Shown here piece after piece: positions 60,063-64,000 of a stretch of DNA of 64,000 bases. Every line of letters begins with the position of its first letter. Within the stretch, counting starts at the first letter, position 1. The stretch comes from Streptomyces chumphonensis (lineage in GTDB: Bacteria > Actinomycetota > Actinomycetes > Streptomycetales > Streptomycetaceae). The position numbers were made by a program, and so were the translations under genes. The DNA lies in the NCBI RefSeq assembly GCF_014779715.1, contig NZ_JACXYU010000001.1, forward strand, positions 434,001 to 498,000, read 5' to 3'. The notes below the pieces were generated by a model. That model searched no databases. It was not told where the DNA came from and was given only the letters and a program-made list of their open reading frames with translations.

Positions 60063-60617
60063 TCAGTGCGGCATGGGGATCTCGAAGTGCACCGTGCTGA
60101 CGCCGGGGCCGTGTTCGCCCGTGGTGCGGGCGTCGAAGACCTCCTTGGCCACACTGCGCCAGAACGCCTCCGCGCCCTCCACGTTGACGTTGGTGTGCAG
60201 GTAGATGCTGTCGTAGCCGGGTGTCCCGGCGGCGAAGTCGCAGGCCCGCCGCACCAGCTCCCGTGCGAGTCCGTGGCGCCGGTGCCCCGTCCGCACGTAC
60301 ACCCGCACGATCTGGGCCGTCGTCACCGGGGGGTAGCGCTCGACCAGCCAGCGCGGGTGCGGCGGATGGTTCGGACCACCGGACCGCACGCCCGTGGTGG
60401 CGACGACCTCCCCGTCGCACACGGCCACCAGCAGCAGGTGTCGGGGGTCGTCCAGGTAGGTGGCCGCGAGGTCGACGACGTCCCGGTGCCACGCGGGCAC
60501 GTAGCCGTACCCGAACTCCTCGTAGAAGGTGTCGAGCATCAGGCGCCGCGCTCCCTCCACGTCGGCGGGCAGGGCGGCGCGGACGGTGTACGGGGTGGCG
60601 AGCGGTGCGTCGGACAT
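60063..60617 (-). CDS. GNAT family N-acetyltransferase
   Basis: A 184-residue acetyltransferase. The acetyl-CoA motif is IVRVYVRTGHRRHGLARELVRRACDFA (near 103-130, RRHGLA as the core) and the C-terminal SIYLHTNVNVEGAEAFWRSV is typical. The acceptor is unknown. It is divergent from the metal-box operon, 185 bp from its start to the first gene's start. The shared region contains the Fur-type box, so it could be co-regulated, but no minus-strand promoter is clear. Confidence 0.84.
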   Translation of the reverse strand: MSDAPLATPYTVRAALPADVEGARRLMLDTFYEEFGYGYVPAWHRDVVDLAATYLDDPRHLLLVAVCDGEVVATTGVRSGGPNHPPHPRWLVERYPPVTTAQIVRVYVRTGHRRHGLARELVRRACDFAAGTPGYDSIYLHTNVNVEGAEAFWRSVAKEVFDARTTGEHGPGVSTVHFEIPMPH

Positions 60618-60688: not shown

Positions 60689-60717
60689 GTGACAACGATA
60701 ACCGTTATGGATAGTGT
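60689..60717 (+). promoter_or_regulatory. Promoter with a Fur-family (Zur/Fur-like) box
   Basis: GTGACA (60689-60694), 17 bp, TAGTGT (60712-60717) form a promoter whose expected start is near 60724. Its spacer is occupied by GACAACGATAACCGTTATG (60691-60709), which matches the classic Fur box GATAATGATAATCATTATC at 14 of 19 positions; four of the five differences are A/T-to-G/C transitions. ATAAC-C-GTTAT is its perfect palindromic core (60698-60708). Overlap with the RNA polymerase site implies repression when metal is bound. Zur, FurA and Nur are all possible owners. Confidence 0.6.
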
Positions 60718-60801
60718 GCGCCTCGATCAACCCGCCATGCGCCCCGGGGTGCGCGGCGGCACGTCTTGAGTTCCTCACCCGCCTTGTGAGAAAGGGAAGC
60801 C

Positions 60802-62058
60802 GTGGCTCACCTGCTAGTGGTCGAAAGCTGGGTCGGATCGATGAGCAGGCTGCTGCCACGCGCGATCCGCGAGGCCGGCCACGAGTTCACCTTCCTCACC
60901 CGGGACCTGCACCACTACCTGCGCACCGCGCCGGAGGGCACCGCCCACCCGCTGCTCGGCGCCCGCCACGTGCTGACGGCCGACACCAACGACGCCGAGA
61001 GCCTGCTGCCGTTCGTCGAGCGGGCCCACCGGGCGCTGGGCTTCGACGGAGTCATCACGTCCTGCGACTACTACCTGCCGACGGCGGCCCGCGTCGCCGC
61101 CCGGCTCGGGCTGCCCGGAGCCGATCCGGAAGCGATCGAGGCGGCGTGCCGCAAGGACCGGACGCGCCGTCTGCTGGCCGACGCGGGCGTACCGGGCCCA
61201 CGATTCGCCGTCTGCCGGGACTGGGCCGACACCGCCGCGGCGGCGCGTCGGATCGGCTATCCGCTGGTGTTCAAGCCGGTGGACCTGTGCGCCGGGATGT
61301 ACGTCCGGCGTGTCGACGACGAGGAGGGGCTCGCACGCGCCTTCCGTGCCCTCGCGGACTTCCCCCTCAACGCGCGGGGTCAGCGGCGCGACCCGGTGGT
61401 CCTGCTCGAGGAGCTGCTCGAAGGGCCGGAGGTCAGCGTGGAGACGGTCTCCTCCGGTGGGACGGCGCACATCGTCGGCGTGACGGACAAGAGCGTCGGC
61501 GGAGCGCCCGCCTTCATCGAGACCGGCCACATGTTCCCCGCCGCGCTCACGCCGGGGGACGCCGAGGCGGCCTGCGCGACCGCGCGGGCGGCGCTGCGGG
61601 CGCTGGGGTTGGACCACGGCGTGTCCCACACCGAGATCAAGCTCACGGCCGACGGCCCCCGGATCGTGGAGGTCAACCCCCGTCCGGCCGGGAACCGCAT
61701 CACCGAGCTCGTCCGTCACGTGACCGGGGTCGACCTCGCCGCCGCGTGCGTCGACGTGGCCCTCGGACGCGAACCGGACCTGCGCCGGCGCGACACCGGT
61801 CTGCGCAGCGCCGCCATCGCCTTCCTCGTCCCGGACACCGCCGGAGTGCTGGAAGCCCTCGACGGCGCGGACGAGGTGCGCGCCGCCCCCGGCCTCCTGG
61901 AGTTCCAGGCGCCCGAGCCCGGCCGCACGGTGAAGGTCGCGGGCAGCAACAACGAGTACCTCGGACACGTCATGGCGGGCGACGCGGCCGGGACGGGCGC
62001 CCGCGACCGTGCCGAAGCGCTGCTCTCCGTACTGTCGCCGAAGGTCGTGAGCCGATGA
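60802..62058 (+). CDS. ATP-grasp carboxylate-amine ligase
   Basis: A 418-residue ATP-grasp enzyme. The pre-ATP-grasp domain starts LLVVESWVGSMSRLLPRAIREAG. KDRTRRLLADAGVPGPRF, GYPLVFKPVDLCAGMYVRRVDD (near 158) and VLLEELLEGPEVSVET (near 195) supply ATP and Mg contacts. EIKLTADGPRIVEVNPRPAGNRITELV (near 283) holds the Mg-binding Glu/Asn typical of L-amino-acid ligases such as BacD. It should join a carboxylate to an amine with ATP; both substrates are unknown. The GTG at 60802 has AAAGGGA upstream. It overlaps the next gene by 4 bp and is the first gene of the metal-box operon. Confidence 0.88.
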   Translation: MAHLLVVESWVGSMSRLLPRAIREAGHEFTFLTRDLHHYLRTAPEGTAHPLLGARHVLTADTNDAESLLPFVERAHRALGFDGVITSCDYYLPTAARVAARLGLPGADPEAIEAACRKDRTRRLLADAGVPGPRFAVCRDWADTAAAARRIGYPLVFKPVDLCAGMYVRRVDDEEGLARAFRALADFPLNARGQRRDPVVLLEELLEGPEVSVETVSSGGTAHIVGVTDKSVGGAPAFIETGHMFPAALTPGDAEAACATARAALRALGLDHGVSHTEIKLTADGPRIVEVNPRPAGNRITELVRHVTGVDLAAACVDVALGREPDLRRRDTGLRSAAIAFLVPDTAGVLEALDGADEVRAAPGLLEFQAPEPGRTVKVAGSNNEYLGHVMAGDAAGTGARDRAEALLSVLSPKVVSR

Positions 62059-62891
62059 CCGGGATCACCGCCCCGCCGGCCACCGTCTCCTCCTACGCCG
62101 AGCTCCTCCAGCGGGTACGCGGCGGTGACCTGGGGCCCGACCCGCGGACTCAGCGCATATCCGTCGCCTTCACCACACGCCAGTCCGTCCGGCACGACGG
62201 ACGCGGCGGCGGCTACCGCAACGAGGTCCTGAGCCTTCGGCTGGCCGAGGCGACCGGGTCCTGCGCGGTGGAACCGGGCGAGCTGCCCGCCGACGCCGTC
62301 GAGGACTGCGTCGGCGCCGACGTCGCCCGGCTCCTGGACCACGACCTGACGGCCGTGCGCGTGGCGGCACTCGACGCCTACCTGTCCCACGCCCTCCCGC
62401 ACCAGCCCGCCCAGGGGGCCCGGGACTACCCGCTGCCCGCCGGGACCTCTCTGGAGAAGTCCCGGGCCCGCGCGCGGGCCGTCGTCGAACTCCTCGACGT
62501 GCGGCGGGGAGGCACCGTTCTCGTCGTCGGGGTGGTGAACTCCCTGCTGGAGGCCCTGCGGGCCCGAGGGCTGAGGTACATCCCCTGCGACCTCAAGGGC
62601 GGCACCACCGAATGGGGCGAACCCGTGCGCCGGGACGCCCCGGCGGAACTGGACCGCTGCGACGCCCTCCTCGCCTCCGGCATGACCCTCGGGAACGGCA
62701 GCTTCGAGCCACTGCGTGAGCACGCGCTGCGCCACGGGAAACCACTGGTGATGTTCGCCCAGACGGGGAGCGCGGTGCTGCCGCGCCTCATCGGGGCGGG
62801 GGTCAGCGCGGTGTGCGCGGAACCGTACCCCTTCTTCTGGCTCCACGGCGGCCCGGGAACCGTGCACCGCTACGGCGGAGCGCTCTCATGA
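62055..62891 (+). CDS. Rossmann-like (DUF364-type) protein, putative metal chelation
   Basis: A 278-residue protein. Its N-terminal half (about 1-120) is an alpha-beta region with VAFTTRQSVRHDGRGGGYRNE. Its C-terminal half (about 130-278) is a Rossmann-like domain: GTVLVVGVVNSLLEALRARG, YIPCDLKGGTTEWGEP, DALLASGMTLGNGSFEPL and LVMFAQTGSAVLPRLIGAGVSAVCAEPYPFFW. This is the layout of DUF364 proteins, which are linked to heavy-metal chelation. Exact activity is unknown. The ATG at 62055 overlaps the ATP-grasp stop (ATGA), and its own stop overlaps the next gene. Confidence 0.75.
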   Translation: MTGITAPPATVSSYAELLQRVRGGDLGPDPRTQRISVAFTTRQSVRHDGRGGGYRNEVLSLRLAEATGSCAVEPGELPADAVEDCVGADVARLLDHDLTAVRVAALDAYLSHALPHQPAQGARDYPLPAGTSLEKSRARARAVVELLDVRRGGTVLVVGVVNSLLEALRARGLRYIPCDLKGGTTEWGEPVRRDAPAELDRCDALLASGMTLGNGSFEPLREHALRHGKPLVMFAQTGSAVLPRLIGAGVSAVCAEPYPFFWLHGGPGTVHRYGGALS

Positions 62892-63985
62892 CCGCGGCCG
62901 TACTCAGCCCCGCCGGGAACCGGGAGCTGCTCGCCCTGCTCGGCCGGACGCCGCTCGCCCGCGTCACCGCCGACCTGCCCTGCCCCCAGCCCGGCTTCTG
63001 GGCCAAGCTCGAAGGGCTCGGCGTCGGCGGAATGAAGGCGCGGGCGGCCGTCGCCATGCTGCTCGGCGCCCGGGAGCGCGGCGAGTTGGCGCCCGGCGCA
63101 CCCGTGGTGGAGTCCACCTCCGGCACCCTCGGCATCGGTCTCGCCTTCGCGGGCCAGGCGCTCGGGCACCCGGTCGTTCTCGTCGGCGACGCCGAACTGG
63201 AAGCCCCGATGCGGCAGTTGCTGCGCGCGTACGGGGTGCGACTGGAGCTGGTCGACCGGCCGGCCGACCCCGGTGGCTGGCAGGCCGCCCGACTGGCGCG
63301 GCTGCGCGAACTCCTGGCACGGCTCCCGGACGCCTACTGGCCCGACCAGTACAACAACCCGGACAACAACGCCGGATACGCCTCCCTCGCGGCGGAACTC
63401 GCCGCCCAGCTCGATCACCTCGACGTGCTGGTGTGCAGCGTGGGGACCGGCGGCCACAGCGCGGGCGTCGTCGCCCCGCTGCGCCGGTACTGGCCCGGCC
63501 TGCGGTTGATCGGCGTGGACGCCACCGGCTCGACGATCTTCGGGCAGCCTGCCCGGCCTCGGCTGATGCGGGGCCTGGGCAGCAGCATCCATCCCCGGAA
63601 CGTCGCCTACGAGGCGTTCGACGAGGTCCACTGGGTCGGGCCGGCCGAGGCCGCCGACACCTGCCGACGGCTGGCCAGGACCACGTTCGTCAGCGGCGGC
63701 TGGAGTACCGGTGCCGTGGCTCTCGTGGCCGCCTGGGCCGCGCGGGTCCACTCCGGTGCCGTCGTCGCGACCGTCTTCCCGGACGGCCCGCACCGCTACC
63801 TCGGAAGCGTCTACGACGACGACTTCACCGACGCCCACGGCCTCGACCTGAGCACGGCGGCGGCCCGCCCCGTCGAGATCCCGCATCCGCGCGCCGTGGA
63901 GGCGACCGGCTGGGTCAGGTGCCGGACGGTCACCGATCCGCTGGCCCCCGCCGCCGCCCCGCCGCCCTCGGGAGAACGCACGTGA
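62888..63985 (+). CDS. Cysteine-synthase-like PLP-dependent enzyme
   Basis: A 365-residue fold-type II PLP enzyme of the CysK/CBS family. The Lys is in GVGGMKARAAVAML (near 48-61, where CysK has SxKDR), the phosphate-binding loop in CSVGTGGHSAGVVAP (near 193), the substrate loop in ESTSGTLGIGLAF (near 77) and SGGWSTGAVAL near 269. The residue after the Lys is Ala, not Asp, which is a family-branch mark rather than a defect. It probably does beta-replacement on an activated serine, as SbnA or DcsD do, giving an amino acid building block such as diaminopropionate (inferred). The ATG overlaps the preceding stop by 4 bp. Confidence 0.86.
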   Translation: MTAAVLSPAGNRELLALLGRTPLARVTADLPCPQPGFWAKLEGLGVGGMKARAAVAMLLGARERGELAPGAPVVESTSGTLGIGLAFAGQALGHPVVLVGDAELEAPMRQLLRAYGVRLELVDRPADPGGWQAARLARLRELLARLPDAYWPDQYNNPDNNAGYASLAAELAAQLDHLDVLVCSVGTGGHSAGVVAPLRRYWPGLRLIGVDATGSTIFGQPARPRLMRGLGSSIHPRNVAYEAFDEVHWVGPAEAADTCRRLARTTFVSGGWSTGAVALVAAWAARVHSGAVVATVFPDGPHRYLGSVYDDDFTDAHGLDLSTAAARPVEIPHPRAVEATGWVRCRTVTDPLAPAAAPPPSGERT

Positions 63986-64000
63986 AGCTCACCCAGCACA
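63982..64000 (+). CDS. Start of the next operon gene, truncated by the window end
   Basis: A GTG at 63982 overlaps the TGA of the CysK-like gene (GTGA) and opens a frame VKLTQH that runs off the window. Overlap and a GGAGAACG ribosome site (63971-63978) support a genuine fourth gene. Its product cannot be judged from six codons. Confidence 0.55.

What the first reader, a model, noticed from the sequence alone, without database searches (positions are those of the whole stretch)
60689..64000. Metal-box-controlled operon with ATP-grasp, Rossmann-like and CysK-like genes
The promoter (GTGACA, 17 bp, TAGTGT) has its spacer covered by a 19-bp G/C-shifted Fur-family box with a perfect ATAAC-C-GTTAT core, so a metal-bound repressor would block RNA polymerase directly. 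The genes behind it overlap by 4 bp each and are the kinds that build and bind small molecules: an amino acid ligase, a DUF364-type Rossmann protein linked to metal chelation and a cysteine-synthase-like PLP enzyme that could make a diamino acid. Together they look like a metallophore or metal-storage pathway outside the NRPS and NIS schemes. No such pathway with exactly this set is known to me.
Basis: partly seen in the sequence, partly recalled or inferred. Interest (0 to 1): 0.8.

Follow-up and report, generated by a model that had tools for sequence, protein, structure and literature searches.

The report
Zinc-scavenging molecule operon in Streptomyces
This stretch opens a ten-gene operon, kept in the same order in many Streptomyces, that is predicted to make, export and re-import a small zinc-binding molecule, likely by a route unlike the known ones, and would be switched on when zinc runs short.

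Summary
Three overlapping genes (ATP-grasp ligase, DUF364 protein, SbnA-type PLP synthase) start a ten-gene operon that continues past the window: dipeptide-epimerase-like enzyme, MFS exporter, methyltransferase and a complete Nik/Cnt-type ABC importer. All ten genes lie in this order in 72 of 80 relatives; seven of the other eight are cut short. The promoter box is a Zur box by descent: with a matrix built from znuA promoters, 72 of 76 relatives exceed the 99th shuffle percentile. The window's own copy has drifted and is not significant alone (68 of 500 shuffles reach it). A ~40%-identical paralogous group keeps the DUF364+SbnA pair (47 of 48 loci), mostly with other partners (FecCD importers, GHMP kinase), and in 42 of 48 the best Zur site again lies at an operon head. 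Best reading: a Zur-controlled zincophore pathway, neither NRPS, NIS nor opine-type, with DUF364+SbnA as core. Not shown: product, chemistry, zinc binding, Zur binding. The searches made in the held library listed no paper on it.

The parts
60063..60617 (-). GNAT acetyltransferase gene, divergent, sharing the 184-bp promoter region with g1; probable member of the regulon
   Evidence: Pfam Acetyltransf_1. GNAT gene near g1 in 24 of 68 loci; 12 adjacent; of the 12 lying 1.7-1.9 kb away, 4 (L098, L106, L116, L133) have a strong Zur box of their own and 8 have none
60689..60717 (+). Promoter: -35-like GTGACA (60689-60694), 17-bp spacer, -10-like TAGTGT (60712-60717)
   Evidence: read; relatives keep TGACAA and TAgyGT-like elements at the same spacing in many loci
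60690..60710 (.). Operator: drifted Zur box in two overlapping registers (60690-60704 and 60696-60710), palindromic core ATAACCGTTAT 60698-60708
   Evidence: orthologous position carries TGAAAAYGATTATCG in relatives; the window copy alone is not significant
60802..62058 (+). g1, ATP-grasp L-amino-acid-ligase-like enzyme
   Evidence: PF13535, PF18603 LAL_C2; nearest solved protein L-amino acid ligase BL00235
62055..62891 (+). g2, DUF364 (PF04016) protein: enolase-N-like plus Rossmann-like fold
62888..63985 (+). g3, SbnA-type PLP beta-substitution enzyme
   Evidence: PF00291; TIGR03945 238 bits, below its cut-off 349.95; best PDB matches are SbnA entries; Arg132 and Tyr152 equivalents kept, Ser185 equivalent is Gly
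63982..64000 (+). g4, start of a dipeptide-epimerase-like enolase-superfamily gene (ends at 65043 in extended coordinates, beyond the window); followed by g5 MFS 65040-66299, g6 methyltransferase 66310-67113, g7 SBP family 5 67179-68783, g8 and g9 permeases 68780-69733 and 69730-70515, g10 double ATPase 70512-72038
   Evidence: L008 = C1:490001-510000; families; coordinates

Best explanation
The finding is the head of a ten-gene operon that is predicted to build, export and re-import a small amino-acid-derived zinc chelator (a zincophore), and that zinc-loaded Zur would keep off when zinc is plentiful. Proposed steps, all inferred from family and context: the SbnA-type enzyme (g3) replaces the beta-leaving group of an activated serine (likely O-phosphoserine) by the amino group of an amino acid, giving an N-Cbeta-linked aminopolycarboxylate; the DUF364 enzyme (g2) acts next on that adduct; the ATP-grasp ligase (g1) joins an amino acid; the epimerase (g4) inverts a stereocentre; the methyltransferase (g6) decorates; the MFS protein (g5) exports; the Nik/Cnt-type ABC system (g7-g10) takes the zinc complex back. 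Shown directly: gene order and its conservation, families, key residues, Zur-like boxes at this promoter in relatives and at operon heads of paralogous clusters. Not shown: product, metal, reactions, binding of Zur.
For: One strand, 4-bp overlaps at seven of nine junctions. All ten genes in order in 72 of 80 loci, 68 of them with every best piece covering at least 60% of its query. Importer nearest Nik and Cnt models, exporter MFS: the MFS plus Opp/Nik transport pair is that of staphylopine-type zincophores (passages). Zur box upstream of g1: 72 of 76 above the 99% and 67 above the 99.9% shuffle level; best site of the whole locus within 300 bp upstream of g1 in 65 of 75. Independent paralogous group: SbnA-type gene in 47 of 48, MFS in 47 of 48, best Zur site of the stretch at a cluster-gene head in 42 of 48 against 8.7% of sequence counted as head. 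SbnA-type Arg and Tyr kept in 72 of 72 and 47 of 47. A CobW-type GTPase gene with a Zur box lies beside the cluster in 4 loci.
Against: The window's own box does not score as a Zur site (68 of 500 shuffles reach its 6.0 bits), although the genome has canonical boxes elsewhere. 8 of 12 separated GNAT genes have no box. In 10 of 75 clade A loci and 6 of 48 clade B loci the best site is elsewhere. g3 has Gly where SbnA has the OPS-selecting Ser185 and misses the curated SbnA cut-off. All transporter matches are below curated cut-offs. The matrix was trained on sites picked with the published Zur consensus, so it is not independent of it. No expression, binding or metabolite data.
Confidence: 0.75

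Rival explanations
1. It makes a diaminopropionate-containing dipeptide antibiotic or antimetabolite (bacilysin- or dapdiamide-like) that only happens to be zinc-regulated; the ABC system imports peptides.
For: ATP-grasp ligase resembles BacD and, weakly, dapdiamide synthase models; SbnA-type enzyme and MFS exporter also occur in such pathways (recalled).
Against: A whole importer is kept in the operon in 72 of 80 loci; Zur boxes also head paralogous clusters whose importer is FecCD-type (36 of 48).
Confidence: 0.1
2. A metallophore, but for another metal (nickel, cobalt, copper or iron), or in this strain under another Fur-family regulator.
For: The importer is nearest nickel transporter models; the window's box has drifted from the Zur consensus while staying palindromic; the own genome has four Fur-family genes.
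Against: Canonical Zur motif in 72 of 76 relatives and at heads of paralogous clusters. A recalled IdeR box gave no hit with up to 4 mismatches in 13 stretches; FurA and Nur motifs were not scored.
Confidence: 0.1
3. It is a member of the known EDDS (aes) zincophore pathway of Amycolatopsis.
For: Both are Zur-linked and outside NRPS and NIS (passages); both may use serine-derived N-Cbeta chemistry (inference).
Against: This DUF364 subfamily was found in 7 of 396 genomes of the phylum, six of the same genus and one remote partial hit. None of the ten proteins matched an argininosuccinate-lyase domain family in Pfam. The aes protein sequences were not at hand, so no direct comparison was made.
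Confidence: 0.04
4. A catabolic or scavenging operon for peptides or chelates, not a biosynthetic one.
For: Dipeptide epimerases and peptide-type ABC importers occur in peptide catabolism (general knowledge).
Against: ATP-grasp ligase and MFS exporter point to synthesis and export; the ten genes stay together.
Confidence: 0.03

Closest known systems
Staphylopine / Cnt and other opine-type zincophore systems
   Same: MFS exporter paired with an Opp/Nik-type (or, in clade B, FecCD-type) ABC importer, small amino-acid-derived product proposed, zinc-linked control (passages of PMC7438024 and PMC5666155).
   Different: No nicotianamine-synthase-like or opine-dehydrogenase domain among the ten proteins; instead ATP-grasp, DUF364, SbnA-type PLP enzyme and a dipeptide-epimerase-like enzyme.
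[S,S]-EDDS (aes) zincophore of Amycolatopsis japonicum
   Same: Zur-controlled, outside NRPS and NIS logic (passages of PMC4993170 and PMC9252823).
SbnA of staphyloferrin B synthesis
   Same: g3's best model and best PDB matches; Arg132 and Tyr152 equivalents kept. SbnA joins O-phosphoserine and glutamate (abstract and passages of PMC12414870).
   Different: Ser185 equivalent is Gly; no SbnB-family gene in the operon, the only PF02423 match of the genome is at C1:804634, about 300 kb away.
DUF364 protein Dhaf4260 (3l5o)
   Different: 13% identity; that paper proposed flavin, pterin or similar chelators, not an SbnA partner.
Coelibactin of S. coelicolor
   Same: Zur-controlled zincophore locus in Streptomyces (passages of PMC5472717).
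   Different: Described as a non-ribosomal peptide (abstract of PMC3430247 in the listings); no NRPS domain here.

Membership tests
Zur regulon | Zur-box motif at the promoter, in relatives | tested here: met
   72 of 76 upstreams above the 99% shuffle level; 65 of 75 loci have their best site there
Zur regulon | Zur-box motif at the promoter, in the window itself | tested here: inconclusive
   6.0 bits, 68 of 500 shuffles equal or better; symmetric but drifted
Zur regulon | Zinc- and Zur-dependent expression | not testable with these tools
   needs RNA and protein experiments
Opine-type zincophore | Nicotianamine-synthase-like enzyme and opine dehydrogenase (CntL, CntM) in the cluster | tested here: not met
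   no such Pfam domain among g1-g10 at E up to 0.001
Opine-type zincophore | MFS or EamA exporter with Opp/Nik- or FecCD-type importer | tested here: met
   nearest curated models are below their cut-offs
NRPS or NIS metallophore | NRPS domains or IucA/IucC synthetase | tested here: not met
   none among g1-g10 in Pfam
EDDS (aes) pathway | Orthologues of the aes genes | not testable with these tools
   the aes sequences were not at hand; papers seen give no gene table
SbnA family (TIGR03945) | Curated score cut-off | tested here: not met
   238 bits against 349.95
SbnA family (TIGR03945) | Arg132, Tyr152, Ser185 named as OPS-selecting (passage) | tested here: inconclusive
   Arg and Tyr kept, Ser is Gly, in 72 of 72 orthologues and 47 of 47 paralogues
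DUF364 (PF04016) | Curated cut-off and fold | tested here: met
L-amino acid ligase | ATP-grasp domain with LAL C-terminal domain | tested here: met
   PF13535 and PF18603 above cut-off
Dipeptide epimerase (enolase superfamily) | KxK, acidic metal ligands, second Lys, DxD (roles recalled) | tested here: met
   kept in 73-74 of 74; DLD aligns with 3iji and 3jva
Dipeptide epimerase (enolase superfamily) | Curated cut-off of an epimerase model | tested here: not met
   DgcA 210.8 of 400, L-Ala-D/L-Glu epimerase 138.9 of 343

The most novel reading that the evidence does not exclude
DUF364 plus an SbnA-type PLP enzyme is the two-enzyme core of a new class of zincophores (neither NRPS, NIS nor opine), carried by about four in ten Streptomyces in several rarely co-occurring variants. 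They differ in tailoring (ATP-grasp and epimerase, GHMP kinase, or 2OG oxygenase) and in importer (Nik/Cnt or FecCD), and this would give DUF364 its first reaction: processing the N-Cbeta-linked adduct made by the PLP enzyme.
Probability: 0.5. Interest if true: 0.82.

Novelty: new variant of a known kind. Interest (0 to 1): 0.72.

Why it matters
It points to a zinc-acquisition metabolite in a heavily mined genus, made by enzymes that ordinary NRPS, NIS or opine searches would pass over. It offers a testable role for DUF364, a family with a structure since 2010 and no assigned reaction in the papers I saw. Aminopolycarboxylate zinc chelators are also of practical interest: EDDS as a biodegradable chelator (passages) and aspergillomarasmine A as a metallo-beta-lactamase inhibitor (abstract in listing).

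Tried and rejected
Zur matrix on the window site: not significant, told as evidence against. The random-window control was spoiled because windows could overlap the boxes (its 99% level is 19.0, its maximum 24.3); searches replaced it. Of the ten clade A misses, four have their best site at the GNAT gene and three at a CobW-type gene; L069, L104 and L134 are unexplained. Of the six clade B misses, three (L194, L223, L227) have a strong site outside what I counted as heads, and L155, L199 and L210 have none there as good as elsewhere; among the 42 that count, two (L153, L200) score only 10.4 and 8.7 bits. A recalled IdeR box gave no hit with up to 4 mismatches in 13 stretches. FurA and Nur motifs were not scored: no model at hand. 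The own genome's second znuA-like gene has no box within 457 bp upstream, though a box lies at a ZnuB-like ORF about 2 kb before it. The EDDS link was sought in papers, but no gene table was seen. Literature searches around the gene set listed no paper on this cluster; only those terms and that library were searched, and most listed papers were not opened. A Serratia paper in which a DUF364 gene raises prodigiosin was looked at in passages and does not mention zinc. Pfam left several clade B ORFs without a family. The LysR, cysteine-dioxygenase-like and YeiH-like genes after g10 are not in the conserved set.

Dropped rows: 4 of 80 loci (g1 match at or under 97% of length); one more (start too near the end of the stretch). 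Clade B loci fetched: 48 of 63 listed places (62 genomes, one with two copies; hand count). In one search the DUF364 query is missing in 10 of 48 loci; I take this as an overlapping GHMP query winning the place, as each locus was chosen for its DUF364 hit. Genome counts for the two groups (52, 32, both 1 of 199; 44, 33, both 2 of 197) were read by hand; the samples overlap. The protein search showed only the best 120 of 1222; the contig scan kept the best 80 of 290.
Full report
WHERE IT LIES. The window is bases 434001-498000 of contig C1 of a 5.8-Mb genome; the nearest named relatives of g2 are Streptomyces. The contig continues, so the region after 64000 could be read.

THE OBSERVATION. g1 60802-62058, g2 62055-62891 and g3 62888-63985 overlap by 4 bp each. 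The promoter is GTGACA - 17 bp - TAGTGT (60689-60717), with ATAAC-C-GTTAT at 60698-60708 in the spacer. Perfect 5-1-5 palindromes number 208 in the 64 kb, but only this one has 8 or more A/T.

THE WHOLE OPERON. g3 overlaps g4 by 4 bp and further genes follow on the same strand: g4 enolase superfamily (63982-65043), g5 MFS (65040-66299), g6 methyltransferase (66310-67113), g7 family-5 substrate-binding protein (67179-68783), g8 and g9 permeases (68780-69733, 69730-70515), g10 a fused double ATPase (70512-72038), in extended window coordinates. Seven of nine junctions are 4-bp overlaps; the others are gaps of 10 and 65 bp. That the ten genes are one transcript is inferred. Curated models place the importer nearest nickel (Nik) and staphylopine (Cnt) transporters, all below their cut-offs.

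CONSERVATION. The genome-contig scan found 290 relatives of g2 and kept the best 80, 78 of them titled Streptomyces. All ten genes are in order on one strand in 72 of 80; seven of the other eight loci hold only 6.9-15.3 kb, and one (L076) lacks g8-g10 in 20.8 kb. In 68 of the 72 every gene's best piece covers at least 60% of its query; L078, L087, L098 and L111 have shorter pieces. In 199 Streptomyces genomes 52 carry this type of g2 (69% identity or more) and 32 a ~40% relative (counted by hand). Across the phylum the subfamily was found in 7 of 396 genomes, six of them the same genus, the seventh a partial remote hit.

THE BOX. Choi et al. 2017 give the S. coelicolor Zur motif as tGaNNatSatNNtCa (PMC5472717, passages). 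I built a matrix from znuA promoters only: 29 of 30 Streptomyces znuA upstreams have a site with at most 2 mismatches to that motif, nine distinct sites; the matrix thus leans on the published consensus, but not on this cluster. On the 76 usable upstreams of g1 (of 80) the best score has median 19.0 bits; 72 exceed the 99% and 67 the 99.9% level of dinucleotide shuffles. In 65 of 75 loci the best site of the whole locus is within 300 bp upstream of g1. The commonest form is TGAAAATGATTATCG, 30 of 76. In the window the same place reads CGATAACCGTTATGG: symmetric (6 of 7 arm pairs) but far from the matrix; the best overlapping register scores 6.0 bits and 68 of 500 shuffles do as well. The genome keeps canonical boxes at znuA, at an L32-like ribosomal ORF and at a ZnuB-like ORF (the last two named by eye from their first residues), so its Zur has not obviously changed its preference. 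In this strain the box is best called a drifted Zur box of unknown strength.

NEIGHBOURS. A GNAT gene is near g1 in 24 of 68 loci with at least 5 kb upstream: 12 adjacent, as in the window, and 12 about 1.7-1.9 kb away; of the latter, 4 carry a strong box of their own and 8 do not. A CobW-type GTPase (named by eye) occurs in 6 of 68 loci, with a box in 4.

AN INDEPENDENT GROUP. I fetched 48 of 63 listed places with the ~40% DUF364. The SbnA-type gene is found in 47 of 48 (the 48th, L200, is cut by its contig end), an MFS gene in 47, FecCD permeases in 36, a GHMP kinase in 34, a 2OG-oxygenase-like gene in 6 and a Nik-type binding protein in 4, plus one more beyond the stretch of L152 (L161). 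In 42 of 48 the best matrix site of the whole stretch lies at the head of a cluster gene, against a mean 8.7% of sequence counted as head (the loci are related, so the printed binomial tail is not a true probability). 15 of 48 stretches hold an exact match to the published consensus. So the DUF364+SbnA pair stays together while importer and tailoring enzymes change, and the Zur box mostly stays too. The two groups seldom share a genome: 1 against 8.4 expected in 199, 2 against 7.4 in 197 (overlapping, related samples).

HOW IT MOST LIKELY WORKS (inferred). Under zinc shortage Zur would leave the promoter. The SbnA-type enzyme would add an amino acid through its nitrogen to the beta-carbon of serine, as SbnA does with glutamate (abstract and passages). 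A kinase that could make the phosphorylated substrate sits in 34 of 48 paralogous clusters, as SbnI does for staphyloferrin B (passage); this operon has none and would draw on central O-phosphoserine. DUF364 would process the adduct; its pocket was judged fit for a longer substrate or for condensing two molecules (PMC2954201, section 3.2). Ligase, epimerase and methyltransferase would complete a short, partly D-configured chelator; the MFS protein would export it; the ABC system would import the zinc complex. MFS exporters with Opp-type importers, and FecCD importers in some actinomycetes, are known from opine-type zincophore clusters (PMC7438024, passages).

STATUS. It works like a Cnt system in transport but is not one in synthesis. 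It works like SbnA at one proposed step but misses the curated cut-off and one of three residues. Its relation to EDDS is untested. The searches named under Tried and rejected listed no paper on this cluster.

Noticed in passing
60063-60617 (-); L085, L098, L106, L116, L133: The divergent GNAT acetyltransferase may belong to the same regulon: in four relatives where it lies 1.7-1.9 kb from g1 it has its own strong Zur box, and in L085 a second box lies in the shared region; eight other separated copies have none.
   Followed up: partly
L071:6434-7594 (-), also L067, L079, L104: A CobW-type GTPase gene with a Zur box lies beside the cluster in four relatives.
   Followed up: partly
Streptomyces genomes: The two DUF364 groups rarely occur in one genome (1 against 8.4 expected in 199; 2 against 7.4 in 197), as if one type replaces the other.
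   Followed up: partly
L151:3000-20000 and L162: Beside a clade B cluster lies another, minus-strand set with MFS, methyltransferase, MR/MLE-type, ATP-grasp and Nik/Opp-type ABC genes, about 22-39% identical to g1 and g4-g10: a possible remote version of this operon.
   Followed up: partly
L008:16119-18801 (extended window 72119-74801): LysR regulator, cysteine-dioxygenase-like and YeiH-like genes follow the operon on the same strand but are not in the conserved set.
   Followed up: no
G000:C12:455300 and C12:459348 (L233, L240): Two strong Zur-like boxes about 4 kb apart in the own genome, at genes not identified; possibly another zinc locus.
   Followed up: no
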